Assembly: GCA_017309275.1 (NCBI GenBank)
Contig: JAFKLT010000031.1
Coordinates: forward strand, 124,001-188,000
Reading direction: 5' to 3'
DNA: 64,000 nt
Origin: Sphingomonadales bacterium
Lineage (GTDB): Bacteria > Pseudomonadota > Alphaproteobacteria > Sphingomonadales > Sphingomonadaceae
Shown one piece after another: positions 12,851-30,488 of the stretch (positions are counted from its first letter, which is position 1; each line of letters starts with the position of its first letter). The notes beneath the pieces are model-generated. The model was not told the origin of the DNA. It saw only the letters and a program-made list of their open reading frames with translations, and made no database searches. Both the position numbers and the translations under genes were made by a program.

Positions 12851-13672
12851 ATGCCCTATCGTAATGCCTGGATCTGGTGCCTCGCGATCATCGCGATGAC
12901 CGTCGTCGCCTTCTGGCCGGGCTATTTCTCGCAGCTCGGCGAAGCAAAGATCGCATGGCACATTCATGCGATCACCGCGACCGCATGGATCCTGCTGATC
13001 GCTGCGCAAAGCTGGTCTATCGACCGCGGCGGCCGCGCGCTGCACCGCAGCCTGGGGCTCGCGATCTTCGTGGTGGTGCCGTTGTTCCTGGTCGGCGGCG
13101 CCGGGGTCGAACATAGTATGGCGATCGCAACCGGATCGGGAAAAGACCCCTTCTACGATCTATGGGGCCCGTCGCTCGGCATCTATGACTTCGTCGCCTC
13201 CGTCGGGTTCGTCGCGCTCGCCGCGATGGCGCTGAAGGATCGCCGCAATGTCGCGCGCCACGCCGCCTGGCTGCTCGCGACGCCGCTGCTGTTGGTCGGC
13301 CCCGCTCTGGGCCGCATCTATAATGCGCATCTGCCCGGCCTCATCATCAACGGACCACAGGATTTTCCGCTGTTCCGTTGGAGCGTCCATCTGGGCGGGC
13401 TGACGGCGGTCGCGGTCGCGCTTTGGCTGTGGTCGCGCCATCGCCGTCACGGCCGACCTTGGCTGATAGTCGCAGGCATCAACCTGCTCGAATCGCTGCT
13501 CTTCGAAACCATCGGCTTCATGCCCGCATGGAAGACGGTCTTCGTCGCCTTCGGCACCGTCCCGATCGCCGTTCATTCGCTCGGCGCCATACTGCTCGCT
13601 GCCGCCGCGCTCTGGTGGGGCTGGCGCAGCGTCCCACCGCGCCGCACCGGTCCGGTGGAGGCAATGGCTTGA
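12851..13672 (+). CDS. multipass inner-membrane protein, unknown function
   Basis: The 273-residue protein has about seven hydrophobic helices, among them WIWCLAIIAMTVVAF, HAITATAWILLIAAQ, LGLAIFVVVPLFLVGGAGV, FVASVGFVALAAMAL, AAWLLATPLLLVGPAL and VHLGGLTAVAVALWLW. Conserved-looking histidines sit at helix edges (KIAWHIHAITATAW, ALHRSLG, NVARHAAWLL), which recalls DUF2306 or cytochrome b561-like proteins, but I cannot assign the family. The start is supported by GGGAGAG 5 bp upstream. It precedes an esterase and LacI regulator by 121 bp and is probably independent of them. Confidence 0.65.
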   Translation: MPYRNAWIWCLAIIAMTVVAFWPGYFSQLGEAKIAWHIHAITATAWILLIAAQSWSIDRGGRALHRSLGLAIFVVVPLFLVGGAGVEHSMAIATGSGKDPFYDLWGPSLGIYDFVASVGFVALAAMALKDRRNVARHAAWLLATPLLLVGPALGRIYNAHLPGLIINGPQDFPLFRWSVHLGGLTAVAVALWLWSRHRRHGRPWLIVAGINLLESLLFETIGFMPAWKTVFVAFGTVPIAVHSLGAILLAAAALWWGWRSVPPRRTGPVEAMA

Positions 13673-13750: not shown

Positions 13751-13765
13751 AATAGCGACGCTATT
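13751..13765. repeat. AATAGC-GAC-GCTATT inverted repeat
   Basis: A perfect 6-bp inverted repeat with a 3-bp spacer sits just upstream of the ATCGAT operator of the esterase/LacI unit. The same half-sites occur at 5983-5996 with a 2-bp spacer. A preceding TTGGACA could be a -35 element. Confidence 0.35.
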
Positions 13766-13778
13766 GGTATCGATGTCA
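13765..13778. promoter_or_regulatory. LacI-type operator, site 1 (TGGTATCGATGTCA)
   Basis: The site matches the palindrome TGnyATCGATrnCA also found at 16678, 16744 and 25463. It lies 16 bp upstream of the esterase ATG at 13794, where a bound repressor would block the promoter. The most likely regulator is the LacI protein encoded next (14729), making this autoregulation. Confidence 0.6.
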
Positions 13779-13793
13779 TGCGAAAGGAATTCC

Positions 13794-14699
13794 ATGCTCG
13801 ATCCCGATATCGCGGCCTTGGTGGGCCAGCCGCAGGAGATGCCTCCATTAAGTCCCGACATCATTCCGATGATGCGCGCCAATATGGCGATGATGGCGGC
13901 GGCGATGCCCGGCACGGATATCGACCATGTCGAGGATTTCGACGCCGATGGCGTTCCGGTTCGCCTGTATCGGCCCGCGTCGGACACGCCCCTGCCGCTC
14001 CTCGTCTTTCTGCACGGCGGCGGCTGGATGTTCGGCGATCTCGAAACGCATGATTCGATGACGCGCCATCTCGCGGCCGCGAGCGGCTGTGCGGTGCTCG
14101 GCGTCGGCTATCGCCTCGCGCCCGAACACAAGTTTCCGGCGGGCCTCGACGATGCGATGACGGCCCTTGACTGGGCCTGCGGTTCGGCCGCCGACCTTGG
14201 CTGCGACCCCGATCGTATCGCGCTCGGCGGCGAAAGCGCGGGGGGCAATCTCACCGCCGCGGCAACGCTACGCCTCCGTGACGAGGGCAAGGCGCAGCCG
14301 CTGTTCCAACTGCTCATCCACCCCGCAACCGACATGAGCTTTTCACTCCCATCTTTCACCGAGATCGCGGCCCCCGGCCTGTCGAAAACCTATCTCGACG
14401 CGTGCCGCGAATATTATCTCGGCGATGTCTCCGAAACGCATCCCCTTGCCTCGCCACTGCGCGCCGAAAGCCACGCCGGACTTGCGCCCGCGATCCTTCT
14501 CACCGCTTCCGAAGACCCCCTGCGCGATGATGGCGAATATTATGCCGCCGCACTCGTCCGCGCAGGGGTCGAAACGCTCGCGCGCCGGTTGCAGGGGTTG
14601 CCCCATGGCTTTCAGTTCCTGCCGATCACGATTCCTGCGGTCGCGGCGGCCAACGACTTGATCGGGGGACTGGTTCGCCGCTACTTCGCGGCTACATAG
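13794..14699 (+). CDS. alpha/beta hydrolase, HSL-type esterase
   Basis: The 301-residue hydrolase of the hormone-sensitive-lipase group has the oxyanion motif HGGGW (74-78) and nucleophile elbow GESAG (Ser148). A Ser-Glu-Asp stretch (LLTASEDPLRDD) provides the catalytic Asp and GLPHGF the catalytic His. These enzymes cleave carboxylic esters with short to medium acyl chains. No signal peptide, so it is cytoplasmic. The ATG at 13794 follows GAAAGGAA; the frame continues upstream without support. It is the first gene of a unit with LacI (29 bp apart) and sits behind an operator. In context it probably deacylates an imported sugar ester; it could act on another ester. Confidence 0.88.
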   Translation: MLDPDIAALVGQPQEMPPLSPDIIPMMRANMAMMAAAMPGTDIDHVEDFDADGVPVRLYRPASDTPLPLLVFLHGGGWMFGDLETHDSMTRHLAAASGCAVLGVGYRLAPEHKFPAGLDDAMTALDWACGSAADLGCDPDRIALGGESAGGNLTAAATLRLRDEGKAQPLFQLLIHPATDMSFSLPSFTEIAAPGLSKTYLDACREYYLGDVSETHPLASPLRAESHAGLAPAILLTASEDPLRDDGEYYAAALVRAGVETLARRLQGLPHGFQFLPITIPAVAAANDLIGGLVRRYFAAT

Positions 14700-14728
14700 G
14701 GTCAGGATTTTTCGGGGGACACGCATCG

Positions 14729-15730
14729 ATGGGCAGGATCGGCAAGGACGAGCGCCCGACCATGGAAATGGTCGCGACGCTGGCCGGTGTCTCAAAGATC
14801 ACGGTGTCGCGCGCGCTGCGCGGCAGCAGCCTCGTCCGCCCGGAGGTCCGCGAGCGCATCGTCGAGGTGGCGAACAAGGTCGGATACCGGATGAACGTCG
14901 CGGCGCGCAGCCTCCGCACGCGCGAAACGCGGACGATCGCGGTCGTGATTGACCAGATCGACCCTGGCCGCCAGTCGCACACCGATCCGCTGATCCTGTC
15001 GATCATCGGCGGCCTGCTCGAAACGCTGACCCCCGCGGGCTATTCGACGCTGCTCACGACCAACGAGCATTTCCTGTCGTCCAGCGCGGTCGGCGCCGAT
15101 GGCGCGGTCATGCTGGGCCAGGGCGAAGGCGCGCATCGGGTAACGCAGGTATCGGCGATCAATCTGCCGATGGTCGTCTGGGGCGAACCCGTCCCCGGCG
15201 TCAGCGTCAAGGTCGTCGGCAGCGACAACCGTATGGGCGGCAAGCTAGCCGCCGAACATCTGGTGAGCCGCGGAGCATCGCGCCTCCTGTTCCTCGGCGA
15301 CATCCAGCATCCGGAAATTGCCGCCCGTCTCGAAGGATTTCGTGAGGCGCTGGCGTCGAGCGAAGCCCGGCTCATCGACGCCCTGCCCTGCGCCTTCACC
15401 GCCGACGGGGGCGCCGAGGCCGTGCGCGCCGCGCTCGACGCCGGCAGGACATTCGACGCCGTCTTTGCCGCAAGCGACTTCATCGCCGCCGGCGCCTGCG
15501 ACGCGCTATCGGCGCGTGGCCTTTCCGTACCTGAAGACGTCGCGATCGTCGGCTTCGATGATGCGCCGATCGCAAGCGTCCATCGTCCGTCGATCAGCTC
15601 GATTCGACAGGATGGCGCCGAGGCCGGCCATGCGCTCGCCAATGCCGTCATGGCCCTGATCGAAGGCAAGTCATCCACTGCGGCGCACGCGCTCCCCGTC
15701 GAGCTCATCGCGCGCGAAACGAGCCGCTGA
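14729..15730 (+). CDS. LacI family transcriptional regulator (regulator of the trehalase locus)
   Basis: The 333-residue protein has an N-terminal LacI helix-turn-helix (MEMVATLAGVSKITVSRALR, then the hinge helix VAARSLRTR) and a periplasmic-binding-protein-like effector domain (GGKLAAEHLVSRGASRLLFL, then DVAIVGFDDAPIASVHRPSI). LacI proteins are usually sugar-responsive repressors. It lies downstream of an operator (13765-13778) in the esterase unit. Matching operators precede the convergent esterase, the TonB receptor operon and the MFS/esterase pair, so it is the probable local repressor. The inducer could be trehalose, a trehalose derivative or a breakdown product (inference). Confidence 0.93.
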   Translation: MGRIGKDERPTMEMVATLAGVSKITVSRALRGSSLVRPEVRERIVEVANKVGYRMNVAARSLRTRETRTIAVVIDQIDPGRQSHTDPLILSIIGGLLETLTPAGYSTLLTTNEHFLSSSAVGADGAVMLGQGEGAHRVTQVSAINLPMVVWGEPVPGVSVKVVGSDNRMGGKLAAEHLVSRGASRLLFLGDIQHPEIAARLEGFREALASSEARLIDALPCAFTADGGAEAVRAALDAGRTFDAVFAASDFIAAGACDALSARGLSVPEDVAIVGFDDAPIASVHRPSISSIRQDGAEAGHALANAVMALIEGKSSTAAHALPVELIARETSR

Positions 15731-15734
15731 CGCT

Positions 15735-16664
15735 TCAGCCGAGCTGTCTACGAAAAAAGTCGGCGATAATCGCATAGGTTTCGACCGATTCGGGCAGGTC
15801 GACGTCCATATGATGCGCGTGCCACAGGCCGTCGAACAGGACGAAGCGGGCGTCGACGCCGGCCGCGAGCAGTCGCCGATGCATCACCGACACGGCACTC
15901 GCCGCGAAATCGCGTGTCGCGGAGATCAGCAGGCTCGGCGGAAAATGCGCGAGCAATTCGGGATGCTCGGCGGCGAGCACGAGCGGGTCGGCAAGATCCG
16001 CACCCTGGAAATAGGGAAGCTCTTCGATCCTGGGTGCCGCTGCACCGCCCGCACGCGGGTCGAACAATTGCTGCGCCAGCGCTGCATCGCCCGCGAAGGG
16101 CACCGGCGCGCCGTGGAATATTCCGATCGCACCGGGCTTCGCCTGCCCGTCACGGAGAAGGCGCGCAACCGCCTGGGTCGTCAGAACCGCGCCCGCGGAG
16201 CAACCGTAAAGGCCGACCTTCGCCGGATCGGCCGTTTCGATCACGGCACGATAGACCGCAACGACGTCTTCGACCGCGGCGGGATAGACATGCTCGGGCG
16301 CAAGGCGATAATCGACCGCAAGAACGCGCATGCGCGCGACCGCAGTGATCGGCACCGCCTCGAGCAGCGCGCCGGGTCCCTCGCCCCACATGAAGGCCCC
16401 GCCGTGGAGGCATATCAGAACTGGCGCATCGGCCGCGCCGCCCGTTGGCGCCACGTCATACACCGTCACTCCCGCGACGGAGCGCTCGATAATCTCGACA
16501 GCATATTTCGCCCGTGCCTTGTCGAGCAGGCGCTGATTGTAATCGCGGAAGAAGGGCCGCGCGGCAGCGATATCCGACGGCGTGGCGGATTCTTGCAGGA
16601 ACGCGCCGAACCGCGCCTTCGCTTCGTCGCTTACCCACGGCCCGAATTGGTCGGCGTCGCTCAT
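15735..16664 (-). CDS. alpha/beta hydrolase, HSL-type esterase
   Basis: The 309-residue cytoplasmic hydrolase has the oxyanion motif LHGGAFMWGEG, nucleophile elbow GCSAG, an Asp in SATRDFAAS and a His in GLWHAHHMD. It belongs to the same broad class as the three other esterases of the locus but is not closely similar to them. It is convergent with LacI, with only 4 bp between the stops, and transcribed from the receptor promoter region on the other strand. The ATCGAT operator at 16678-16691 lies 14 bp upstream of its start, so it should be controlled by the same repressor. Substrate unknown; ester hydrolysis on an imported acylated compound is inferred. Confidence 0.87.
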   Translation of the reverse strand: MSDADQFGPWVSDEAKARFGAFLQESATPSDIAAARPFFRDYNQRLLDKARAKYAVEIIERSVAGVTVYDVAPTGGAADAPVLICLHGGAFMWGEGPGALLEAVPITAVARMRVLAVDYRLAPEHVYPAAVEDVVAVYRAVIETADPAKVGLYGCSAGAVLTTQAVARLLRDGQAKPGAIGIFHGAPVPFAGDAALAQQLFDPRAGGAAAPRIEELPYFQGADLADPLVLAAEHPELLAHFPPSLLISATRDFAASAVSVMHRRLLAAGVDARFVLFDGLWHAHHMDVDLPESVETYAIIADFFRRQLG

Positions 16665-16677
16665 CCCACTTACCTTC

Positions 16678-16691
16678 TGTTATCGATAGCA
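16678..16691. promoter_or_regulatory. LacI-type operator, site 2 (TGTTATCGATAGCA)
   Basis: The site fits TGnyATCGATrnCA and lies directly upstream of the esterase starting at 16664 on the minus strand. Confidence 0.55.
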
Positions 16692-16704
16692 GCAGCTAAT
16701 TCCA

Positions 16705-16716
16705 GCTATTGATAGC
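16705..16716. promoter_or_regulatory. possible auxiliary operator (GCTATTGATAGC)
   Basis: The half-sites GCTAT/ATAGC resemble the ends of site 2. The site lies between sites 2 and 4 in the divergent esterase/TonB-receptor promoter, where several LacI dimers could co-operate. The centre differs from the other sites. Confidence 0.35.
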
Positions 16717-16743
16717 CTTTCCTGTATCTTGCGCAAGACCTAT

Positions 16744-16757
16744 TGACATCGATATCA
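16744..16757. promoter_or_regulatory. LacI-type operator, site 3 (TGACATCGATATCA)
   Basis: This is a near-perfect palindrome around ATCGAT, 59 bp upstream of the TonB receptor start. It overlaps TTGACA, a good -35 element, so a bound repressor would exclude RNA polymerase. Confidence 0.6.
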
Positions 16758-16815
16758 TTTTGTCCCATCCGCATCATCGACCGGGCGAATCCGGCTATCC
16801 TTTGGGAGGGAAGTG

Positions 16816-19122
16816 ATGATTTCGATGCGTTCCGCCTTTCTGCTTGCGCTCGCGAGCAGCGCGAGCTTGCTGCCCGCGGCCGCCTTTGCGCAGACCGAAA
16901 CGCCGCCGACGGACGAAACCGGCGCCTCAGCCGACGAAGGCACTGGCCTCAACGACATTATCGTCACCGCGCGTCGCCGCGAAGAGAAGTTGCAGGACGT
17001 GCCGATCGCCGTCACCGCCTTCACCGACGAGGCGCTCGAACAGAGGGGCGTCACCGACCGCACCTCGCTCGCCGACAACACCCCTTCGTTGTTCACGATC
17101 AGCGGCGGCTACCCGCGCGAGTTTGCCTATTTCGCCCTGCGCGGTCAGGGGCCCGCGTTCGGATCGACGCCGGGCGTCGTCAACTATTTCGCCGAGGTCC
17201 CGAACAGCGTGAATGTCGACGGCCGCGTCGGCACCTATTTCGACCTCGCCAACATCCAGGTGCTGGCGGGGCCGCAGGGCACACTGTTCGGCAAGAACGC
17301 GACCGGCGGCAACATATTGTTCGAGCCGGTGAAGCCGAAGGACGCGTTCGAGGGCTATGTCCGCGTCCAGCTCGGCAATTATGACGACCGTCGGATCGAA
17401 GGCGCGCTCAACACGCCGATCGTTCCCGGCCGGGTGATGCTGCGCATCGCCGGCGAAGTCGGGCGCCGCGACGGCTATACCAAGGACGTCGGTCCCTTCT
17501 TTGCGGGCAAGGACTACGACAACCTTTCCTATGAGAGCTTCCGTTTCGGCCTGACCGTGCGGCCGAGCGACAATGTCGAGCTCTATACGATGCTGCGCTA
17601 TTATCATTCGGACAACAATGGCGGCGGCACCGTGCTCGCGGCCTTCAACCCCGCGGCGGGCGCCGATCTGGGCCCGCCGTTCGGCTTTATCCCGGTGCTG
17701 GCCTTCTACCCCGGCGCCGCGACCGCGGTCGCGCAGCAGCAGGCGCGCGGGCCCCGCCGCGTCTCCTATGACCTCGACCAGTTTTCGGAGACGAAATATT
17801 GGCAGGTCATCAATCAGGCCTCGGTCCAGCTGACCGACACGATCAAGCTGCGCAACATCGTCAGCTATTCGGAGCTGCGCACGATCTACGGCTATGACTA
17901 TGACGCGACGATCTATCCGCTCGCGGGCCAGCGCGGGCGCATCCCGACGATCGCGCCCAATTTCTTCACCGAAGAGCTGCAGCTCCAGGGCACCTTGTTC
18001 GACGATGCGGTCGATTTCTCGGTCGGCGGCTATCTCGATCGCCAGAGCTGGAGAGACCCCGCCGGTATCGAGCAATATACCTTCTTCCCCATCGGCACGC
18101 TGATCCCGCCGATCTCGGGCTACTTCACCAATCGCAACCGCAGCGAAGCCGTGTTCGGACAGGCGACGGTCGACCTCGGCAAGCTGTCGCCCGCGCTCAC
18201 GGGCCTCAGCGTCACGGGCGGACTGCGCTATACCTGGGAGCATAGCTTCACCTCGCAGACCATCGGCGGCCCGCCCGCCGTGTCGGGTTCGGTCGACAGC
18301 GACTATCCCAGCTATACCGCGACGCTCGACTATGACGTGACGCCCGGCGTCCACGTCTATGTCACCGCGCGCGACGCCTATAAGTCGGGCGGCGTCAACG
18401 GCCCCGTTCCCGTCGGCTCGCAATATCGCATCTACGCGCCCGAACGCCTGTCCGACGTCGAGGTCGGGCTGAAGTCGCAATTCTCGATCGGCAATGTCGA
18501 CGTCCGTGCGAACGTCGCCGCCTATCGCGGCATCTATGACGATATCCAGCGCACCACGGTCGAAGCGGTCCAGACGCCCAGCGGCCCGGTCCTGCTCAAC
18601 GTCACCCGCAGCGCCGCCAAGGGCAAGATCGAGGGCGTCGAGCTGAACCTCGCGGTCGTCCCGGCGCGCGGGCTGACGCTGAACGGCAGCTACTCCTACA
18701 TCGACGCGCGCTATACCAAGGTCGCCGATGCGAATGCGGGGGCGATCCTGAACGGCGCGCCCTTCCCCTATACGCCCAAGCATAAATTCTCGATCGGCGG
18801 CTCTTACGAAACCTCGCTCGGGTCGGCCGGCGACCTGATCATGGCGGTCAATTATGTGCGCCAGACCAAGGTCTCGACCGCGCAGACCAATTCGTCCTTC
18901 TACAATTTCCTGCCCGCCTATGGCCTGCTCAACGCCAGCATCGGGCTGAAGGACCTCGGCGGCCGCCCGATCGACGTGACGCTGTTCGCCAACAACATCA
19001 CCAACGAGGCAAAGCCGGTCGGCGTGCTCGACCAATATGCCGGCAGCTCGGGAACGGTGGGACTGACCTATAACGAACCGCGCACATATGGCGTGCGGAT
19101 CGGCTACCGGTTCGGGAACTGA
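16816..19122 (+). CDS. TonB-dependent receptor of the trehalase/esterase operon
   Basis: The 768-residue outer-membrane receptor has a signal peptide (LPAAAFA-Q), a TonB-box-like NDIIVTARRR, and a plug with KLQDVPIAVTAFTDEALE and IQVLAGPQGTLFGKNATGG. The barrel ends in VRIGYRFGN. The plug type is that of the broad sphingomonad receptor group serving many organic ligands. I chose the ATG at 16816 behind GGGAGGG; a GTG three bases earlier is less likely. An operator overlaps its -35 region. An esterase starts 4 bp after its stop, followed by trehalase and acyl-CoA ligase, so it most likely imports the acylated sugar that those enzymes degrade (inference). Confidence 0.93.
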   Translation: MISMRSAFLLALASSASLLPAAAFAQTETPPTDETGASADEGTGLNDIIVTARRREEKLQDVPIAVTAFTDEALEQRGVTDRTSLADNTPSLFTISGGYPREFAYFALRGQGPAFGSTPGVVNYFAEVPNSVNVDGRVGTYFDLANIQVLAGPQGTLFGKNATGGNILFEPVKPKDAFEGYVRVQLGNYDDRRIEGALNTPIVPGRVMLRIAGEVGRRDGYTKDVGPFFAGKDYDNLSYESFRFGLTVRPSDNVELYTMLRYYHSDNNGGGTVLAAFNPAAGADLGPPFGFIPVLAFYPGAATAVAQQQARGPRRVSYDLDQFSETKYWQVINQASVQLTDTIKLRNIVSYSELRTIYGYDYDATIYPLAGQRGRIPTIAPNFFTEELQLQGTLFDDAVDFSVGGYLDRQSWRDPAGIEQYTFFPIGTLIPPISGYFTNRNRSEAVFGQATVDLGKLSPALTGLSVTGGLRYTWEHSFTSQTIGGPPAVSGSVDSDYPSYTATLDYDVTPGVHVYVTARDAYKSGGVNGPVPVGSQYRIYAPERLSDVEVGLKSQFSIGNVDVRANVAAYRGIYDDIQRTTVEAVQTPSGPVLLNVTRSAAKGKIEGVELNLAVVPARGLTLNGSYSYIDARYTKVADANAGAILNGAPFPYTPKHKFSIGGSYETSLGSAGDLIMAVNYVRQTKVSTAQTNSSFYNFLPAYGLLNASIGLKDLGGRPIDVTLFANNITNEAKPVGVLDQYAGSSGTVGLTYNEPRTYGVRIGYRFGN

Positions 19123-19126
19123 GCGG

Positions 19127-20083
19127 ATGACCTACACGCCCCCGCCCCAGCCGCCCATCGCGTCGACCGTCAGCGCAGAGGCGCGCGCGGTGATGACGCC
19201 GATCCTCGATCCCGCCAGCCAGCCGCCGATCACGGCCGAGATGCTGCTCGATCCCGACGCGCTGGCCTTCATCCGGTCTTCGTCCGCCGCGATGCTCAAG
19301 CCGCTCGCGGATGCCCGCGCCGCGCGCCATGGGGTCGAGGTCGAGGACGGCCTTCATGGCGGCGTTCCGGTCCGCATCGTCCGCAAGGCCGGCACGGCGG
19401 CATCCGAAGACCGTCTGCTGATCAACTTCCACGGCGGCGGCTTCGTCCTCGATTCCGGATCGCTCAACGAATCGATCCCGATCGCGGGACTGACCGGCAT
19501 CCCCGTCGTGACGGTGGACTACCGCCTCGCGCCGGAGCATCCGTTCCCGGCCGCCGTCGATGATGCCCTCGCGGTGTATCGCGACGCGCTGACGCGCCAT
19601 GCGCCGTCGGCGATCGGCATCTTCGGCACCTCGGCAGGCGCGATCCTGTCGTTGCAGCTTCTCGCCCGGCTAAAGGCGGAGGGCCTGCCCCTTCCCGCTG
19701 CGGCCGGCCTGCTTTCCGGCGCCGGCGACCTGGGCGTGGTCGGCGATTGCGAGGCGTTTTTGCCGTCGCTCAGCGCGGGGCGCCCGTCGACCGAGATGCT
19801 CGACAGCTATTGCACCGCGACACCGCGAAGCGATCCCCTGCTTTCGCCGATCCGCGGCGATCTGTCGGGCCTGCCGCCGGTGATGGTGATGGCCAGCACG
19901 CGCGACCAGTTGCTCAGCCACAGCCTGCTCGTCGACCGCGCGCTGCGCGCCGCCGGGGTCACGGTCGACCTGCGCGTCTATGAAGGGATGATGCATGCCT
20001 TCTGGGCGTGGATCGAGTGCCCCGAAACCGACGATGCGCTTGCAGCGCAGGCAGATTTCCTTCTCCGACACCTGCCCGGTTGA
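19127..20083 (+). CDS. alpha/beta hydrolase, cytoplasmic HSL-type esterase
   Basis: The 318-residue protein has the oxyanion motif FHGGGFVLDSG, nucleophile elbow GTSAG, Asp in ASTRDQLL and His in MMHAFWAW. No signal peptide is present. It is clearly paralogous to the exported esterase at 23188-24195: both share HGGGF-x-DSGSL, YRLAPEHP and DDALAVY. It starts 4 bp after the TonB receptor stop, and its TGA overlaps the trehalase ATG (TGATG), so the genes are translationally coupled. It probably removes acyl groups from a trehalose ester before or after trehalase acts (inference). Confidence 0.88.
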   Translation: MTYTPPPQPPIASTVSAEARAVMTPILDPASQPPITAEMLLDPDALAFIRSSSAAMLKPLADARAARHGVEVEDGLHGGVPVRIVRKAGTAASEDRLLINFHGGGFVLDSGSLNESIPIAGLTGIPVVTVDYRLAPEHPFPAAVDDALAVYRDALTRHAPSAIGIFGTSAGAILSLQLLARLKAEGLPLPAAAGLLSGAGDLGVVGDCEAFLPSLSAGRPSTEMLDSYCTATPRSDPLLSPIRGDLSGLPPVMVMASTRDQLLSHSLLVDRALRAAGVTVDLRVYEGMMHAFWAWIECPETDDALAAQADFLLRHLPG

Positions 20084-21567
20084 TGCGCGCGGAGCCCAGC
20101 CCCGCCGACCTGTTCGGGCCGCTGCTTGCCAAGGTGCAGGAACGCGCCATCCTGCCCGACGGCAAGACGTTCGTCGATGCGGTGCCGCGGCGTCCCGTGG
20201 CCGAGATCATGCGCGATTTCGGGTGCCTGCCCGCCGGAGACGAGGCGCTGCGCTCTTTCATTGCGGCCAATTTCGACCTACCCGCCGCGTCAGAAGGCGC
20301 GCGGCCCGCGGTCCTGCCGCTGCGCGACCATATCCGCGCGCTGTGGAAAGACCTGGCCCGCGCGCCCGAACGGGCCGCCGGCGGGTCGGCCCTGCCCGTT
20401 CAGCATCGGCACGTCGTGCCCGGTGGACGCTTCCGCGAGATCTATTACTGGGACAGCTTCTTCACGATGCTCGGCCTCGTCCGCGATGGCGAGCTGGAAC
20501 TGGCCAACGGCATCGTCGATGCGCTCACCGACCTGATCGAGGCCCACGGCCACATCCCCAACGGATCGCGCACTTACTATCTCGGCCGATCGCAACCGCC
20601 GCTGTTTCACATGATGGTCGAGCTGCTCGGCGACGACAGGTCAAAGGTCGCGGCGCGCCGACTATCGGCGATGAAGCGCGAACATGCCTGGTGGATGGAG
20701 GGCGCCGAAACCCTCGCGCCCGGCGCCCGGCACGCGCGCGTCGCCCGGCTTGCCGATGGGCATCTTCTCAATCGCTATTGGGATGCCCGGAACACGCCGC
20801 GCGACGAAAGCTGGCGGGAGGATGTCGCGACGGCGGCGGAGAGCGGCCGGCCGGTCGGCGACGTCTATCGCGATCTTCGCGCGGGCGCCGAAAGCGGATG
20901 GGATTTCTCGTCGCGCTGGCTGGATGGCGATGCCCTGTCGTCGATCCGAACCACGGCGATCGCGCCGGTCGACCTGAACGCCTTTCTGTTCGGCCTGGAA
21001 ATGGCAATCGCCGCGAGCGGCGATGCGGAGGCCGGACGCTACGCCCAAATGGCCGACGCGCGGCGAGAGGCGATGAACCGCCATCTGTGGAATGCCGCGG
21101 ACGGATATTTCGCCGACTATGACATCGACGGAGGCGCGATCCGGTCGCCGCTCACCGCCGCTTCTCTGGCGCCGCTCCTCGTCGGCGCGGCGACGCAGGC
21201 ACAGGCCGATGCGACGGCTGAGGCGGTCGAAAAGAGGCTGCTTGCGCCGGGCGGACTGAACACGACGCTCGCGCGGTCCGGCCAGCAATGGGACCGCCCG
21301 AACGGATGGGCGCCGCTGCAATGGATCGCGGTCGCGGGTCTCCAACGCTATGGTCATGACCGGGTCGCCCGCGAGATCGCGCACCGCTGGGTAAGGACGG
21401 TCGGCACGACCTTTGCCCGCACGGGCCTGCTGTTCGAGAAATATGACGTCGAACAGGCAGACATCGGAAGCGGCGGCGAATATCAGACGCAGACCGGCTT
21501 CGGCTGGACAAATGGCGTCACAGCCGATTTTATCGACAGCTACGACCTGTCGCTACCGACGGAATAA
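20083..21567 (+). CDS. trehalase, glycoside hydrolase family 37
   Basis: The 494-residue enzyme hydrolyses alpha,alpha-trehalose to two glucose. Both GH37 signatures are present: PGGRFREIYYWDSF and QQWDRPNGWAP. The catalytic acid lies in ESGWDFSSRW (Asp) and the catalytic base in GGEYQTQTGFGW (Glu). It has no signal peptide, so it is a cytoplasmic, TreF-like enzyme, somewhat shorter than the E. coli proteins. The start at 20083 overlaps the esterase stop; in-frame codons upstream lie inside the esterase gene. A fatty-acyl-CoA ligase follows after 27 bp. A trehalase placed between an esterase and an acyl-CoA ligase is the main reason to infer acylated trehalose as substrate. Confidence 0.93.
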   Translation: MRAEPSPADLFGPLLAKVQERAILPDGKTFVDAVPRRPVAEIMRDFGCLPAGDEALRSFIAANFDLPAASEGARPAVLPLRDHIRALWKDLARAPERAAGGSALPVQHRHVVPGGRFREIYYWDSFFTMLGLVRDGELELANGIVDALTDLIEAHGHIPNGSRTYYLGRSQPPLFHMMVELLGDDRSKVAARRLSAMKREHAWWMEGAETLAPGARHARVARLADGHLLNRYWDARNTPRDESWREDVATAAESGRPVGDVYRDLRAGAESGWDFSSRWLDGDALSSIRTTAIAPVDLNAFLFGLEMAIAASGDAEAGRYAQMADARREAMNRHLWNAADGYFADYDIDGGAIRSPLTAASLAPLLVGAATQAQADATAEAVEKRLLAPGGLNTTLARSGQQWDRPNGWAPLQWIAVAGLQRYGHDRVAREIAHRWVRTVGTTFARTGLLFEKYDVEQADIGSGGEYQTQTGFGWTNGVTADFIDSYDLSLPTE

Positions 21568-21594
21568 CCGCGGCGCGCCGCGAAAGGAGAGACG

Positions 21595-23178
21595 ATGCTG
21601 CCCGGTTTGATGCAGGACGCGCCGCTTCAGATCAGCGCTATCCTGACCCATGCCGCCCGCGCACATGGCGAGCGCGAGATCGTCTCGAAACTCGTCGATG
21701 AGCCGCTGTGGCGTTATGACTGGGCGGGTTGCGAGCGACGCTCGCGGCAGGCGGCACAGATGCTCGGCAGGCTCGGCATCGACAGCGGCGATCGCGTCTC
21801 GTCGCTCGCCTGGAACACCCACCGGCATCTCGAACTCTTCTATGCCGTTCCGGGCATCGGCGCGGTCCTGCACACCGCCAACCCCCGGCTTAGCGATGAC
21901 CAGATCGCCTTCACGATCAACCATGCGGGCAGCCGCGTCCTCTTCTTCGACGCGAACCTCGCCGATCTCGTCGAACGGCTGAAACCGATGCTGCCCGCGA
22001 TCGAGCGCTATGTGCTGCTCGGTGCACCCTATGAAGAGCTGATCGCGGTCGAGGACGGCGCTTATGATTGGCCGCGCTTCGACGAAAAGGCCGCCGCCTT
22101 CCTTTGTTATACGTCGGGCACGACCGGCGATCCGAAGGGTGTGCTGTACAGCCACCGCTCGATCGTGCTGCACGGCATGGCCGCGGGCCTCAACAGCGCC
22201 TTCGGCTTCAGTGCCTTCGATACCATCATGCCCTGCTCGTCGATGTATCATGCGACCGCCTGGGGCCTGCCCTTCACGGCAGCGATCAACGGCTGCAAGC
22301 TCGTGCTGCCGTGCGACAGGATGGACGGCGCCAGCCTTTCGGATCTGATCCTGGGCGAAGGCGTCACCTTCTCGGGCGGCGTGCCGACGATCTGGACGAT
22401 GTATCTGACCCATCTGGAAAACAGCGGCCAGGGCGTCGGCGATCTCAAACGCCTCGTCATCGGCGGCTCGGCGGTCCCGCGTGCGATGGCCGAGACGTTC
22501 CGCGAACGCTACGGCGTCACCGTGCTGCAGATCTGGGGCATGACCGAAACCAATCCGCTCGGCGTGATCGCGACCCCGACCCCGCTGCTGATGGCCGAGG
22601 GCGCGGATTTCGCAACCGAGACGATTCTGACGCGACAGGGCCGGATGCAGTTCGGGATAGAATTGCGGATCGTCGACGACCTGGGCACGCCGCTGGCATG
22701 GGATGGAGAGCAGGCGGGCAAGCTGCAGGTGCGCGGACCATGGGTGGTCGATCGCTATTACCCCGACCTGGCCGCCGCCGATGCCGACGGCTGGTTCGAC
22801 ACCGGCGACATCGGGACGATCGACCGCTTCGGCTTCCTGCGCCTGACCGATCGCGCCAAGGATGTGATCAAGTCGGGCGGCGAATGGATCAGTTCGATCG
22901 ACCTCGAAAACGCCGCAGTCGGCTGTCCCGGCGTCCGCATCGCGGCGGTGATCGGCGTCCACCATCCGAAATGGGAAGAACGGCCGCTGCTGGTCATCGA
23001 GGCGCATGAGGGGGAGACGCTATGCGCCGAACAGATCCGCGCGCATCTTGAAACCCGTGTCGTGCGCTGGTGGATGCCCGACGATATCCTGTTCGATGCG
23101 GTACCGCTCACCGCGACGGGCAAGATCGACAAGAAAACGCTGCGCGACCGCTATCGCGACCATCTGGCGAACCGCTGA
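21595..23178 (+). CDS. fatty-acyl-CoA ligase (medium/long chain)
   Basis: The 527-residue protein belongs to the ANL adenylate-forming family and should activate a free fatty acid to its CoA thioester using ATP. Visible motifs are the P-loop-like CYTSGTTGDPKGVLYSHRS, the adenylate motif QIWGMTETNPLG, GWFDTGDIG, the FACS-type DRAKDVIKSGGEWISS and the catalytic lysine in ATGKIDKKTLR. It resembles AlkK/FadD-type ligases more than acetyl-CoA synthetases. The start has a strong ribosome site (AAAGGAGAG). It is the last gene of the TonB receptor - esterase - trehalase operon and would channel acyl chains released by the esterases into beta-oxidation. Confidence 0.92.
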   Translation: MLPGLMQDAPLQISAILTHAARAHGEREIVSKLVDEPLWRYDWAGCERRSRQAAQMLGRLGIDSGDRVSSLAWNTHRHLELFYAVPGIGAVLHTANPRLSDDQIAFTINHAGSRVLFFDANLADLVERLKPMLPAIERYVLLGAPYEELIAVEDGAYDWPRFDEKAAAFLCYTSGTTGDPKGVLYSHRSIVLHGMAAGLNSAFGFSAFDTIMPCSSMYHATAWGLPFTAAINGCKLVLPCDRMDGASLSDLILGEGVTFSGGVPTIWTMYLTHLENSGQGVGDLKRLVIGGSAVPRAMAETFRERYGVTVLQIWGMTETNPLGVIATPTPLLMAEGADFATETILTRQGRMQFGIELRIVDDLGTPLAWDGEQAGKLQVRGPWVVDRYYPDLAAADADGWFDTGDIGTIDRFGFLRLTDRAKDVIKSGGEWISSIDLENAAVGCPGVRIAAVIGVHHPKWEERPLLVIEAHEGETLCAEQIRAHLETRVVRWWMPDDILFDAVPLTATGKIDKKTLRDRYRDHLANR

Positions 23179-23202
23179 GCCGCCGGATCATTTTCCGGCG
23201 GC
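23179..23202. terminator. bidirectional hairpin between convergent genes
   Basis: GCCGCCGGA and TCCGGCGGC form a perfect 9-bp stem with a 6-nt loop. It starts right after the acyl-CoA ligase stop. The loop carries the stop codon of the opposing esterase (23188-23190), so the stem also includes its last codons. Confidence 0.7.
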
Positions 23203-24195
23203 GTCGAGCTTTTCTTTCAGGAAGCGCGCGACGATCTCGTTCGCCTGATCGCTTTCGGGAATGGCCATATAGGCCCAGAAGGCATGCGGCAGACCGTCGA
23301 ACACCACGAGCCGCGCATCGGCCCCCTTCTCGTGCAGCGCCCGCGCAAAGATCGACGTCGGGCTGAGCAGGAAATCGCGCGAACTGGTCATCAGCAAGGT
23401 CGGCGGAAACCGCGACACGTCGCCACGGATCGGCGATAGAATCGGGTCGATCATCGGCGTGGCGCCGGCATAGGCGGCAACCCAGTCGAAGCCCGGCCCA
23501 GGCATCCAGCTCTCGGAATCGCCGCGCACCGACAGATCGGCGCTACCCGACAGAAACCCCAGCGCCGCCGGCATCGGGCGGCCCAGGCCCTGAAGCTTCG
23601 CCACCAACTGCCCCGACAGGCACGCGCCGGCCGAGGTGCCGAACACCGCGATCCGGTTCGCCTTCCGATCCTTTTCGAGCGCCTGGTAGACGGCGAGCGC
23701 GTCATCGAGCGCGGCGGGATAGGGATGCTCGGGCGCCAGGCGATACAGGACCGCGACGACGGGCAAGCCGGTGCGCGCGGCGATCGGGATCGTCTCGGTC
23801 AGCGAGCCCGAATCGATCGCAAAGCCGCCGCCGTGAAGGTTGAGCAGCACCGGCCCCTTGCCCAACGCATTCACGCCTTTGGGATAGACGATCCGCACCG
23901 GCACCCCGGCGATCGTCGACGCCTCGACGCGCACGTCATATCGCTTCTGAAGCTCCGTCCCCATCGCGCCCTGCATCGCGTCGATAAACTTGCGGATATC
24001 GGCGATCGGCGGCAGCGGGTCGGGCATCGCCTGCGCGGCGGCGGCGGCGGTCGCCGCCTTGCCTTCGGGGCTCACCGTGTCGGGCAGCGGCCAATTCTGC
24101 ATGTTCAGGGTCGGCGCCGCGGTCTGCGCAAAGGCGGATGCGGAACAGGCGCCCGCCAGCAGCGCGGCCAGAAACATGGTCTTGTAACGTGTCAT
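23188..24195 (-). CDS. exported alpha/beta hydrolase, HSL-type esterase
   Basis: The 335-residue protein has a signal peptide (MFLAALLAGACSASAFA, then QTAAP). Its catalytic motifs are LHGGGFAIDSG, GTSAG, TSSRDFLLSP (Asp) and LPHAFWAYM (His). It is a periplasmic or extracellular paralogue of the cytoplasmic esterase at 19127. Its ATG overlaps the TGA of the upstream MFS gene (ATGA), so both are expressed together from the promoter carrying operator site 4. It may start deacylation of the imported compound in the periplasm, leaving a sugar that the MFS carrier can take up (inference). Confidence 0.88.
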   Translation of the reverse strand: MTRYKTMFLAALLAGACSASAFAQTAAPTLNMQNWPLPDTVSPEGKAATAAAAAQAMPDPLPPIADIRKFIDAMQGAMGTELQKRYDVRVEASTIAGVPVRIVYPKGVNALGKGPVLLNLHGGGFAIDSGSLTETIPIAARTGLPVVAVLYRLAPEHPYPAALDDALAVYQALEKDRKANRIAVFGTSAGACLSGQLVAKLQGLGRPMPAALGFLSGSADLSVRGDSESWMPGPGFDWVAAYAGATPMIDPILSPIRGDVSRFPPTLLMTSSRDFLLSPTSIFARALHEKGADARLVVFDGLPHAFWAYMAIPESDQANEIVARFLKEKLDAAGK

Positions 24196-25427
24196 GATTC
24201 GACTCCCGATGCGGACAATCCGTCCGTGTTGATCTCCGTCTTCCGGTCCGTGCGCGGCCACGCGCACAGCGCGCCCAGCAGCGCGAGCACCGCCATGGCG
24301 AGATAGGCGACCGCCAGGCCATAGGACCAAAGCAGCCCCGATCCCGCCGTCGCGACCGCAAGCACCAGCCCCAGCAGCACGGCGTTCATTCCCTGCGCCG
24401 TCGCGCTGAGATGCGTCGGAACGCGCTGCGCGATGACCAGCATGATGCCCAGGATCGTTCCCGTCGCGGTGATGCCGTTCAGCAACTGTCCGGCGACGAG
24501 GACCGGCAGCGCCGGACTGGTCGCCATGATCGTCCAGCGCAAAGCTGCGGCGAACGCCCCCGCGCCGATCAGCAGCCGCGGATCGCGGTTACCGAGCAGC
24601 TTCGCGCCGAACCAGAACGCCCCGATCTCCGCCGCGACGGCCAGCGCCTGCAGCAAGCCGATCGTCGTCGTCGATATCCCCTGCGCTTCCCACTGGATCG
24701 CGCCGAAGCTGGTCAGCACGCCGTGGCTACCCATGATCAGCGAGGCGGCGACCATCGCGAGGACCAAGCCCCGGTCGCCGACCAGGTCGCGCCATCGGCC
24801 GCCGGTCACTTCGCCGGCGGTGGAAAGGCTGCGGTCAGAGGGGAGCAGGAAGGCAACGATTGCGGGGGCGATCAGCAGCACCGCGATCATCAGCGGCAGC
24901 ATCTTGATCCCGGCGACCCCGATCGCCCAGCCCGCCGCGGCATTCGACGCGACGACCGCGATCGAGCCCCAGACGCGCAAGCGCCCGAAATCGAGCGAGC
25001 GGCTGCGCACCGCCATCACCGCATAGGCATCGGTCAGCACCGGGATCTGGTCCCAGACGATCGAAAAGAAGATGACGATGACGATGCGGCCGGCGTGGTC
25101 CGGCTCGCCAAGCAGCAACAGCACGATGGCGGCGGAGGCGAGCGAGGTATAGGCGATCGCGTTGCGAACCCATCCGCGCCGCCCCACGAAGGCAGAGAAA
25201 GGCGCGACGGTCAGCAACCGCAGGACCATCGGGATCGCCAGCAGCACCCCGATCTCCTCGGCCGATGCCCCCGTCGTTTTCAGCCACAGCGGCAGGAAGG
25301 CGAAGAATCCGTAGTGGATATACAGCGCCAGATAGAGACCGGAAACCCCGGCCCCCAGTCCTCCGAACCCGCCGCCGACGTTCGGCGGCCGCACCTCCGG
25401 CGATGCGCAGTCAGGCTTCGAATCCAT
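24192..25427 (-). CDS. MFS transporter (MFS_1-like sugar/H+ symporter type)
   Basis: The 411-residue protein has about twelve hydrophobic segments. The N-terminal region LALYIHYGFFAFLPLWLK and the segment YAVMAVRSRSLDFGRLRVWG resemble the LacY/nucleoside-symporter/HcaT-like MFS group, whose members import sugars, nucleosides or phenylpropionate. It is the first gene of a two-gene unit with the exported esterase and has an ATCGAT operator about 35 bp upstream of its start. In this locus it is the obvious inner-membrane carrier for trehalose or a partially deacylated derivative. The substrate is inferred from context only. Confidence 0.85.
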   Translation of the reverse strand: MDSKPDCASPEVRPPNVGGGFGGLGAGVSGLYLALYIHYGFFAFLPLWLKTTGASAEEIGVLLAIPMVLRLLTVAPFSAFVGRRGWVRNAIAYTSLASAAIVLLLLGEPDHAGRIVIVIFFSIVWDQIPVLTDAYAVMAVRSRSLDFGRLRVWGSIAVVASNAAAGWAIGVAGIKMLPLMIAVLLIAPAIVAFLLPSDRSLSTAGEVTGGRWRDLVGDRGLVLAMVAASLIMGSHGVLTSFGAIQWEAQGISTTTIGLLQALAVAAEIGAFWFGAKLLGNRDPRLLIGAGAFAAALRWTIMATSPALPVLVAGQLLNGITATGTILGIMLVIAQRVPTHLSATAQGMNAVLLGLVLAVATAGSGLLWSYGLAVAYLAMAVLALLGALCAWPRTDRKTEINTDGLSASGVES

Positions 25428-25462
25428 TTTCCTCTCCCTAGAGGATGGCGCTTACCCTCAAT

Positions 25463-25476
25463 TGTTATCGATGTCA
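25463..25476. promoter_or_regulatory. LacI-type operator, site 4 (TGTTATCGATGTCA)
   Basis: This site differs from site 1 at a single position and lies upstream of the MFS/exported-esterase unit. It brings that unit into the same regulon as the receptor operon on the opposite strand. Confidence 0.6.
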
Positions 25477-27408: not shown

Positions 27409-28686
27409 TCATTCGCCCAGCGACAGCGCCAGGTCGACCAGGTCGCGCTCGCCCGGCTTCAACCGACGCCGCAACAACCGCTCGATCTCGTCCACCGCCT
27501 GCCGCGTCACCTGCGGCGGCGTGGCTTTCAGCACGGTCCCGACGCCGACGGCGCGGCGGGGGTCGATCGCCTCCATCCCCGCCGGCCAGCGATCGGCGTC
27601 CTTCTTCAGCTTGGTGAGAAGGACCGAATTCTCCATCTCGGTCACCATGCGCATGTTCGATCCGGCCAGCGCGGGCTTCAGGTCGGCGGTGACCCCGCTT
27701 TCGATCCAGTGGTTCACCGCGTCGGCGAAATCCATGCCGCCATGATCGACATTCAGCGGGATGGCGAACACGACGCTCGGCTTCGGCCCGCCGGTCCGTA
27801 CCTCCAGCGCGAATTCGATCGACCCCGCGTCGCGCGGCCGCAGAATGACCGAGATGCTGTCCAGGTCCCGGGCAAAGCCGGGGTCGGCGAACGCCTCCTT
27901 CAACACCTCGCCGCGATTATAGTCGAACCGGTTTCGGAGCGTGTCCTTCATCGCCTCTTCCAGGCGGCCCGCATCCGATCGCATCCGCGCGATCTTCGCA
28001 TCCAGCGCGCGGATGTCCGCTGCCCCCTTCAACGTCTTTCGCCTTTCGACCGCCTTTTCGACCTCGCCTCTCAGCGTCAGCAGCTTGCGGCGATCGGGGC
28101 CATAGCGTTCGACGAATTCGGCCAAAATCTTGTCGATGCGCTCCGGGTTCAACCGGCGTTCCCAATGGGCGAGCAATCGCCGCGACAGTTCGGTGGCGCG
28201 CTCCGCCGCCGCGCGCTCGGCGGCATATCTGTTTTTGATCCGGGCCTCGGCGGCGGGGGAAAGGCCGTTCTGCCGACGGCGCAGCGCCGCGATCTCGCTG
28301 GCTTCGGCGGTATCGATCGCGCGCCGGTGCAGGTCGAGTTCCTGCTCGGTACGGCCCAGGAAATGCGCCGTGTCCTTCGTCGGCCGCTGCATGCGCTGCC
28401 GGCCCGCGCCGCGGCTTTCGGGGGCCAGCCGCTCGCCGCGTTCAAACAGGGTACGGATTTCGTCGCGAATCTGCATGCGGGTCCGCGACGGCGCCTGCGA
28501 TGATCGTGCACGCCGCCCGATCTCGGCGATGACCGCGGCAAGCCGGCGCGCCGCGTCGCGCGTCTCGCCCGCTCCCGCCTCGACCAGGTTCACGAACGCC
28601 CTGTCGAAACCCGACTTGGCCTCGGGGTTCAGAAGGCGCGATCCCTTGCTGACCGCGAACCCCATCTGCCTGCGTTTCCATTTCAT
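27409..28686 (-). CDS. unrecognised 425-aa protein, third member of a novel operon
   Basis: I do not recognise this protein. The N-terminal part is basic (MKWKRRQMGFAVSKGSR) and Arg/Ala-rich. Long predicted helices or coiled coil cover about residues 40-260, with many E/R heptad-like stretches (ERATELSRRLLAHWERRL, RGEVEKAVERRKTLKG). The last third is a compact mixed domain (FALEVRTGGPKPSVVFAIPL, then a helical end). There is no signal peptide or transmembrane segment. Its ATG overlaps the TGA of the 597-aa gene (ATGA), so the two are translationally coupled. The end is convergent with the AraC gene, 16 bp apart. Confidence 0.65.
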   Translation of the reverse strand: MKWKRRQMGFAVSKGSRLLNPEAKSGFDRAFVNLVEAGAGETRDAARRLAAVIAEIGRRARSSQAPSRTRMQIRDEIRTLFERGERLAPESRGAGRQRMQRPTKDTAHFLGRTEQELDLHRRAIDTAEASEIAALRRRQNGLSPAAEARIKNRYAAERAAAERATELSRRLLAHWERRLNPERIDKILAEFVERYGPDRRKLLTLRGEVEKAVERRKTLKGAADIRALDAKIARMRSDAGRLEEAMKDTLRNRFDYNRGEVLKEAFADPGFARDLDSISVILRPRDAGSIEFALEVRTGGPKPSVVFAIPLNVDHGGMDFADAVNHWIESGVTADLKPALAGSNMRMVTEMENSVLLTKLKKDADRWPAGMEAIDPRRAVGVGTVLKATPPQVTRQAVDEIERLLRRRLKPGERDLVDLALSLGE

Positions 28687-30476: not shown

Positions 30477-30488
30477 GTGCGTCCGCCC

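What the first reader, a model, noticed from the sequence alone, without database searches (positions are those of the whole stretch)
13765..25476. Candidate acyl-trehalose (trehalose ester glycolipid) utilisation locus
Seen: one operon reads TonB receptor - esterase - GH37 trehalase - fatty-acyl-CoA ligase with gaps of 4, -1 and 27 bp. A facing pair encodes an MFS carrier and an exported esterase. Two more esterases flank a LacI gene, and all promoters carry the same ATCGAT-centred operator. Known: GH37 cleaves trehalose, HSL esterases cleave acyl esters, and FACS enzymes activate fatty acids. Inference: the set imports acylated trehalose (for example actinobacterial trehalose lipids), deacylates it, splits trehalose into glucose and feeds acyl chains to beta-oxidation. 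I know of no described locus of this kind.
Basis: partly seen in the sequence, partly recalled or inferred. Interest (0 to 1): 0.85.

Follow-up and report, generated by a model that had tools for sequence, protein, structure and literature searches.

The report
Trehalose-ester utilisation locus in sphingomonads
A conserved, co-regulated set of nine genes looks built to import a sugar (trehalose) that carries acid side chains, strip the chains off and eat both parts; the substrate still has to be shown by experiment.

Summary
In detail: nine genes (four HSL-type esterases, LacI, TonB receptor, GH37 trehalase, acyl-CoA ligase, MFS carrier) lie at 13,794-25,427. One operator palindrome precedes each of the four units; the 5.1 Mb genome has only six such sites.

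On a tree of 114 trehalases, 16 fall on one side of a supported branch. All 16 have an esterase nearby, 13 have exact operators, and 0 of 15 readable N-termini show a signal-peptide-like stretch. Gene order and the acid-activating enzyme change between loci: four loci have a CoA-transferase behind the trehalase, two of them also a ligase and a thiolase. Elsewhere on the tree, four loci pair a trehalase with esterase, ligase and GH1. Two genomes hold a second trehalase outside the group. The catalytic residues are those of ordinary trehalases.

Best reading: uptake of acylated trehalose, deacylation, trehalose cleavage, CoA activation of the acids. Chain length is open: the CoA-transferase leans short, the ligase models disagree. 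Substrate is inferred. Class: a carbohydrate utilisation (CUT) locus with an acyl module, a new variant of a known kind.

The parts
13765..13778 (+). operator palindrome before est1-lacI
   Evidence: exact match TGGTATCGATGTCA; exact sites also in 12 fetched loci of the group
13794..14699 (+). est1: HSL-type esterase, GESAG motif, no signal peptide seen by eye
   Evidence: Pfam Abhydrolase_3 218 bits; NCBIfam LipP1 268 bits, below its cut-off 350
14729..15730 (+). LacI-family regulator
   Evidence: Pfam LacI + Peripla_BP_3; relatives 41-49% identical sit beside GH65 or trehalase genes
15735..16664 (-). est2: HSL-type esterase, GCSAG motif, no signal peptide seen by eye
   Evidence: Abhydrolase_3 106 bits; NCBIfam GCSAG_HSLs 349 bits, below its cut-off 410
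16678..16691 (+). operator palindrome before est2
   Evidence: exact match TGTTATCGATAGCA
16744..16757 (+). operator palindrome before the TonB operon
   Evidence: exact match TGACATCGATATCA; exact sites also in 12 fetched loci of the group
16813..19122 (+). TonB-dependent outer-membrane receptor
   Evidence: Pfam Plug 40 bits; relatives 56-89% identical in 11 loci of the group, 32-35% in L041 and L092
19127..20083 (+). est3: HSL-type esterase, GTSAG motif, no signal peptide seen by eye
   Evidence: Abhydrolase_3 149 bits; NCBIfam GTSAG_HSLs 346 bits, below its cut-off 380; nearest solved chain PMGL2, 6qla
20083..21567 (+). GH37 alpha,alpha-trehalase, no signal-peptide-like stretch
   Evidence: Pfam Trehalase 460 bits; periplasmic trehalase 5z66 503 bits; Asp274 and Glu452, the probable catalytic pair, invariant in 114 rows
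21595..23178 (+). AMP-forming acyl-CoA ligase, chain length open
   Evidence: Pfam AMP-binding 220 bits; NCBIfam: 3-(methylthio)propionyl-CoA ligase 668 bits, below cut-off 822; long-chain-fatty-acid--CoA ligase PRK06187 509 bits, above cut-off 476; PDB best 6ihk 506 bits (named AMP-binding domain protein), then 6ijb, then 1ult, a long-chain ligase, 439 bits
23188..24195 (-). est4: HSL-type esterase, GTSAG motif, N-terminal signal-peptide-like stretch (by eye)
   Evidence: Abhydrolase_3 128 bits; NCBIfam GTSAG_HSLs 445 bits, above its cut-off 380
24192..25427 (-). inner-membrane MFS carrier (MFS_1_like)
   Evidence: Pfam 125 bits; at E 1e-40 a match in only 2 of 397 genomes of the family, own included, both near the trehalase
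25463..25476 (+). operator palindrome before MFS-est4
   Evidence: exact match TGTTATCGATGTCA

Best explanation
The locus is a LacI-controlled utilisation system for trehalose that carries ester-linked acyl groups. The TonB receptor takes the compound over the outer membrane; the exported esterase est4 may trim it in the periplasm; the MFS carrier brings it, or the partly deacylated sugar, into the cytoplasm; est1-est3 finish the deacylation; the cytoplasmic trehalase splits the freed trehalose into two glucose; the CoA ligase (in relatives also a CoA-transferase and thiolase) feeds the acids to acyl-CoA catabolism. LacI represses the four units through the ATCGAT palindrome and is probably relieved by trehalose or its ester. 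Shown here: gene set, operators, conservation, trehalase residues. Inferred: substrate, transport, order of steps, effector, chain length (short to medium slightly favoured).
For: 1) 16 trehalases on one side of a branch (SH-aLRT 97), 16 of 16 near an HSL esterase (15 by the HMM census; the 16th, L034, a 3.5 kb contig, has the end of est3 by tblastn), in Sphingopyxis, Sphingomonas, Novosphingobium and Sphingobium.
2) The set persists through rearrangement and exchange: other order in L037-L040, L046, L051, L056, L121; another ligase (27-29% identical) in L038, L039, L046, L056; a CoA-transferase directly behind the trehalase in L046, L051, L056, L121 (78-87% identical to L121's), a thiolase in L046 and L056.
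3) Exact operators in 13 of 16 loci of the group (window included) and 0 of 100 other trehalase loci.
4) Separate pairing: L065/L101, L058 and L116, elsewhere on the tree, join a trehalase with esterase, CoA ligase (a short hit in L116) and GH1. Over 116 loci a ligase is found in 13 of 24 with an esterase and 2 of 92 without (Fisher P 4e-9; kin not independent).
5) Signal-peptide-like stretch in 0 of 15 trehalases of the group and 81 of 100 others (crude measure).
6) Sphingobium fuliginis (L048, L056) and G395 (L139, L121) hold a second trehalase outside the group.
7) LacI relatives stand beside GH65 enzymes in 10 of 11 regions fetched, and beside a trehalase in L122, with similar palindromes.
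8) The fifth genomic operator lies about 0.1 kb before glucokinase.
Against: No gene tells the acyl chain. The ligase is absent from the DNA held in 6 of 16 loci (L037, L040, L041, L051, L092, L121; L040's contig ends in the trehalase), and which esterases are present varies (no est3 in L040, L046, L051, L056). Five of the nine esterase-near trehalase loci outside the group have no ligase (L109, L115, L120, L122, L123). HSL esterases and CoA ligases are common, broad enzymes. The glucokinase operator is found in 0 of the 16 other genomes searched. The MFS carrier scores best against a 3-phenylpropionate carrier model, below its cut-off, so it might carry the acid instead. L041 and L092 lack the operator and are long branches whose place is unsure. 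No transcript or enzyme data.
Confidence: 0.66

Rival explanations
1. An ordinary trehalose utilisation locus (LacI, TonB receptor, MFS, trehalase); the esterases and ligase serve other esters and are fellow travellers.
For: Receptor, carrier, sugar-splitting enzyme and LacI-type regulator are the known CUT plan (PMC1790865, passages); 92 of 116 trehalase loci have no esterase by the census; the genome has no other GH37 and no GH65.
Against: Esterases near 16 of 16 trehalases of the group despite rearrangement, on the same operators; est3 in the window and the CoA-transferase in relatives overlap or abut the trehalase gene; the L056 and L121 genomes have a second trehalase.
Confidence: 0.14
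2. The substrate is an acyl ester of another glucoside (plant acylsucrose, acyl-kojibiose or similar), the GH37 enzyme having changed specificity.
For: LacI relatives, two of them with an esterase alongside (L200, L202), stand beside GH65 enzymes of open specificity; maltose and kojibiose phosphorylases are the nearest solved ones to L180's.
Against: The probable catalytic residues are invariant in all 114 rows, and no position fixed at 85% in both sets separates the group from the others. Of 21 positions checked, a few vary in the group: R118 is A or V in 5 of 16 rows, and R263, Q171 and Q470 each differ in one.
Confidence: 0.12
3. A biosynthetic locus: the ligase and esterase-like proteins make trehalose esters rather than degrade them.
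For: Acyl-CoA ligases and alpha/beta hydrolases also occur in acyl-transfer pathways (general knowledge).
Against: A trehalase in the same operon would destroy the acceptor; TonB receptor, MFS carrier, LacI and, in two relatives, a thiolase are usual company of catabolic genes.
Confidence: 0.03
4. Scavenging of other natural or man-made sugar esters, aromatic ones included, with trehalase as a by-player.
For: GH1 stands in the second type of locus (L058, L065, L101, L116), in L092 and about 1.5 kb before est1 in L036; the MFS resembles 3-phenylpropionate carriers.
Against: The trehalase is the one sugar enzyme common to all the loci compared (they were found by it, so this is partly by construction); no aromatic ring genes were met, but most flanking genes were not searched against any library.
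Confidence: 0.05

Closest known systems
CUT locus (carbohydrate utilisation with TonB-dependent receptor), sux locus of Xanthomonas (PMC1790865, abstract and passages seen)
   Same: TonB receptor, inner-membrane carrier, sugar-splitting enzyme and LacI-family regulator in one locus; CUT loci are reported also from Sphingomonas and Caulobacter.
   Different: Here four esterases and a CoA-activation step are added, and the sugar enzyme is a trehalase.
GH37 TreA/TreF trehalases
   Same: Same family, aligned over nearly full length; scores above the NCBIfam TreF subfamily cut-off (538 against 512).
   Different: Part of an esterase operon; lacks the signal-peptide-like stretch seen in 81 of 100 of the relatives outside the group.
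LacI-GH65 loci of genomes of the same genus (unnamed; L167, L180, L206-L210) and of other genera (L200-L204)
   Same: LacI 43-49% identical and similar palindromes before the sugar enzyme.
   Different: GH65 instead of trehalase. In L180 it is fused to a beta-phosphoglucomutase and followed by a TonB receptor (not tested in the others). 2 of 11 fetched (L200, L202) have an esterase beside LacI.
DmdB-type 3-(methylthio)propionyl-CoA ligases
   Same: Best NCBIfam hit; enzymes of this type act mostly on small to medium chain acids (PMC5395565, passages).
   Different: Below the family cut-off; a long-chain ligase subfamily model passes its own cut-off instead.

Membership tests
CUT locus | TonB-dependent receptor, inner-membrane carrier, carbohydrate-active enzyme and regulator together | tested here: met
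   Pfam of all nine proteins
CUT locus | receptor and carrier transport the sugar and are induced by it | not testable with these tools
   needs uptake and expression assays
GH37 trehalase | family profile and catalytic Asp/Glu | tested here: met
   460 bits; Asp274 and Glu452 invariant in 114 rows. That these are the catalytic pair is recalled from work on E. coli TreA and placed by the alignment
HSL (family IV) esterases | Abhydrolase_3 profile, HGG oxyanion motif, GxSAG nucleophile motif | tested here: met
   for all four (for est3 the script's first HGG hit is not the oxyanion one; HGGGF is seen). Acyl-chain preference not tested
DmdB (3-(methylthio)propionyl-CoA ligase) equivalog | score above the NCBIfam cut-off 822 | tested here: not met
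   668 bits
long-chain-fatty-acid--CoA ligase subfamily PRK06187 | score above the NCBIfam cut-off 476 | tested here: met
   509 bits; a broad subfamily, so substrate chain is not shown
LacI-family regulator of this locus | palindromic site before each unit, kept in relatives | tested here: met
   binding itself not tested
acyl-trehalose utilisation | esterases act on acyl-trehalose and the strain grows on it | not testable with these tools
   enzyme and growth assays needed

The most novel reading that the evidence does not exclude
Sphingomonads and Caulobacteraceae carry a family of acyl-disaccharide utilisation loci, assembled several times around different sugar-splitting enzymes (GH37, perhaps GH65; GH1 where the trehalose carries further sugars), that let them feed on the trehalose-ester and oligosaccharide-ester glycolipids of actinobacteria: a so far undescribed route by which bacteria eat the surface lipids of their neighbours.
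Probability: 0.3. Interest if true: 0.8.

Novelty: new variant of a known kind. Interest (0 to 1): 0.6.

Why it matters
Trehalose esters are made by many actinobacteria (Rhodococcus, Nocardia, Tsukamurella, mycobacteria), with chains from succinoyl and C2-C6 over C8-C10 to C16-C20 (PMC4365757, passages). My searches (listings only, open PubMed Central papers only) showed no described locus for their catabolism. A dedicated, regulated gene set would make the fate of these biosurfactants and envelope lipids testable and would supply candidate esterases for acyl-trehaloses.

Tried and rejected
Glucokinase as a regulon member: a good operator (score 24.3; sites of the loci score 17.1-32.9) lies about 0.1 kb before glk in the window's genome, but none of the 16 other genomes searched has one near glk, so it is suggestive only. 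The sixth genomic site is inside a TonB receptor gene, probably chance. In 20 other genomes searched with the pattern, 18 have a site. The 11 with an operator-bearing locus have 0-5 further sites outside it, and genomes without one have 0-5. I fetched 14 regions (not every site) and read the frames: no second target recurs apart from LacI-GH65 loci.

Plasmid origin: no plasmid record holds the locus (7 records, each at most 2% of the query); trehalase relatives, all under 60% identity, are on 79 plasmid records. Two flanking genes used as queries (273-aa protein at 12851, SDR at 25597) gave no hit in L032 or L036, so the set may be a cassette; its ends were not tested.

Chain length: I first leaned on the DmdB-like best hit. 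On rechecking, the best-ranking model whose cut-off the ligase passes is a long-chain ligase subfamily, and a long-chain ligase (1ult) is the third solved hit; the relatives' ligases are also mixed. So chain length is left open; the odds for the core reading do not rest on it and are unchanged. GH65 specificity could not be settled. I did not use structure prediction.

Literature: listings (no paper); passages seen in PMC4403928, PMC4365757, PMC1790865, PMC5395565. No paper was read whole.

Two pairs were identical in the core (L043/L113, L095/L097) and one of each was dropped for the tree; other near-copies stay in. Flanks are up to 10 kb and some contigs are short. The tree is a quick one with a midpoint root, so 'group' means one side of a branch. 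The control stretches (L147-L199, 310,566 bases: 6 esterases, 4 ligases) were chosen for operators or glk and are not random. The signal-peptide measure is a hydropathy window with threshold 1.7; the highest in the group are L040 (1.64) and L092 (1.55); L035 was left out, and L037, L056 and 8 of the others had no Met to test from and count as lacking the stretch. One search's list was cut; 11 of its LacI regions were fetched. Gene calls in loci are longest-frame calls, not annotations, and most flanking genes were not searched.
Full report
WHAT IS THERE. The window is G000:C2:124001-188000 of a 5.1 Mb genome in 121 contigs; its closest named trehalase relatives are Sphingopyxis. The trehalase is the genome's only GH37 match and no GH65 was found. 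Of 10 Abhydrolase_3 genes over 100 bits (21 matches in all), four are here; chance about 1e-8.

REGULATION. TGNYATCGATRNCA occurs six times in the genome, four times here, one before each unit. Among the 115 fetched trehalase loci (L032-L146), 12 carry exact sites, all in the group described next. With the window that makes 13 of 16; the exceptions are L034 (a 3.5 kb contig), L041 and L092. The fifth genomic site lies about 0.1 kb before a glucokinase gene. This would fit a regulon that handles the glucose released, but none of the 16 other genomes searched has such a site near glucokinase. LacI proteins 48-49% identical occur in seven same-genus genomes (G042, G122, G224, G293, G324, G365, G384) that have no full-length trehalase. 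Of 11 LacI regions fetched (identities 41-48%), 10 have a GH65 gene beside LacI and palindromes scoring 17 or more; L205 has neither. The GH65 protein of L180 is fused to a beta-phosphoglucomutase. L122 has a LacI of this kind (46%) near a trehalase, two esterases, two TonB receptors and an MFS. The effector is therefore probably a glucose disaccharide, trehalose being one that both enzyme families can serve (family knowledge).

CONSERVATION. 36 of 397 genomes of the family, own included, have a trehalase match, three of them only short ones (G324, G264, G155). Of the ten other same-genus genomes sampled only G324 has a match, 87 residues at 31%. At E 1e-40 the MFS carrier is found in 2 of 397, the window's genome and G395, in both near the trehalase. 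The system is patchy. On a tree of 114 trehalases (quick method, midpoint root) 16 rows lie on one side of a branch with SH-aLRT 97; L092 and L041 in it are long branches, and without L092 the support is 95. The label 'esterase nearby' (24 rows) needs at least nine changes on the tree, against a mean of 22 in shuffles, none of 500 as low.

WHAT VARIES AND WHAT STAYS. L036 has the same nine genes, and so has L032, which has a further ligase-like frame between trehalase and ligase. L038 and L039 put est4-MFS on the other side and another ligase (28-29% identical) before the trehalase; L037 has no ligase or est4 hit in the DNA held, and an IS110 transposase and an AbiEii gene nearby. In L046, L051, L056 and L121 a CoA-transferase directly follows the trehalase (Pfam for L121: AcetylCoA_hyd_C; NCBIfam nearest butyryl-CoA:acetate CoA-transferase, 250 bits against a cut-off of 675), then MFS and est4; L046 and L056 add a ligase (27-29%) and a thiolase. 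A ligase is in the DNA held in 10 of 16 loci. At least one esterase is present in all 16, but which ones varies (no est3 in L040, L046, L051, L056). Sphingobium fuliginis and G395 each have a second trehalase outside the group.

A SECOND TYPE. Elsewhere on the tree, L065 and L101 (Brevundimonas), L058 (Sphingobium terrigena) and L116 (G283) pair a trehalase carrying a signal-peptide-like stretch with one or two esterases, a CoA ligase (in L116 a short hit) and GH1; L116 also has GH42. L092 in the first group also has GH1, and L036 has a strong GH1 hit about 1.5 kb before est1. Five further loci outside the group have an esterase but no ligase (L109, L115, L120, L122, L123). Actinobacterial oligosaccharide lipids have a trehalose backbone with extra sugars and C2-C10 and succinic esters (PMC4365757, passages), and M. 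kansasii lipooligosaccharides have a triacylated tetraglucose core (PMC4403928, passages). GH1 plus trehalase plus esterases would suit such molecules. This match is inference.

WHERE THE STEPS HAPPEN. 0 of 15 trehalases of the group have a hydrophobic N-terminal stretch, 81 of 100 others do (a crude hydropathy measure, threshold 1.7, with L040 at 1.64 and L092 at 1.55 just below). Est4 begins with a signal-peptide-like stretch; est1-est3 do not (by eye). So an ester could be trimmed outside and finished inside. Of 21 trehalase positions checked, the probable catalytic Asp274 and Glu452 are invariant in all rows; R118 varies in 5 of 16 rows of the group and three others in one row each; no position fixed at 85% in both sets separates them. 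The enzyme therefore probably needs free trehalose, and deacylation would come first.

CHAIN LENGTH. The signals conflict. The ligase's best NCBIfam hit is 3-(methylthio)propionyl-CoA ligase (668 bits, cut-off 822), a type that acts mostly on small to medium chain acids (PMC5395565, passages). But the best-ranking model whose cut-off it passes is a long-chain ligase subfamily (509 against 476), and of solved chains 1ult, a long-chain ligase, comes after 6ihk and 6ijb. The ligases of L058, L065, L056 and L038 are likewise mixed. The CoA-transferase of four loci leans to short acids, on a score below its cut-off. HSL esterases prefer short to medium chains (recalled). Short to medium is slightly favoured; long chains are not excluded.

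VERDICT. It is a CUT-type locus with an acyl module, a new variant of a known kind.

Noticed in passing
L167, L168, L180, L200-L204, L206-L210: LacI + GH65 loci with palindromes like those of this locus; GH65 of L180 is fused to beta-phosphoglucomutase and followed by a TonB receptor. L200 and L202 also have an esterase beside LacI.
   Followed up: partly
L147:6241-6254: Operator palindrome about 0.1 kb before glucokinase in the window's genome, not found near glucokinase in the 16 other genomes searched.
   Followed up: yes
L122:15648-18675: A TniQ-like (just under the Pfam cut-off) and a TniB gene near a trehalase-esterase-LacI region, a sign of transposon traffic.
   Followed up: no
L123:14470-17423: Two sulfatase genes near a trehalase with an adjacent esterase.
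   Followed up: no
L036:296-3159: A GH1 hit and a frame that reads like a carboxylesterase (by eye, not searched) just before the locus.
   Followed up: no
L032:11475-12968: A 497-aa frame with partial ligase similarity between trehalase and CoA ligase, not present in the window.
   Followed up: no
window 27409-33215: Three long consecutive minus-strand frames (482, 597 and 908 aa) next to the locus; not searched against any library.
   Followed up: no
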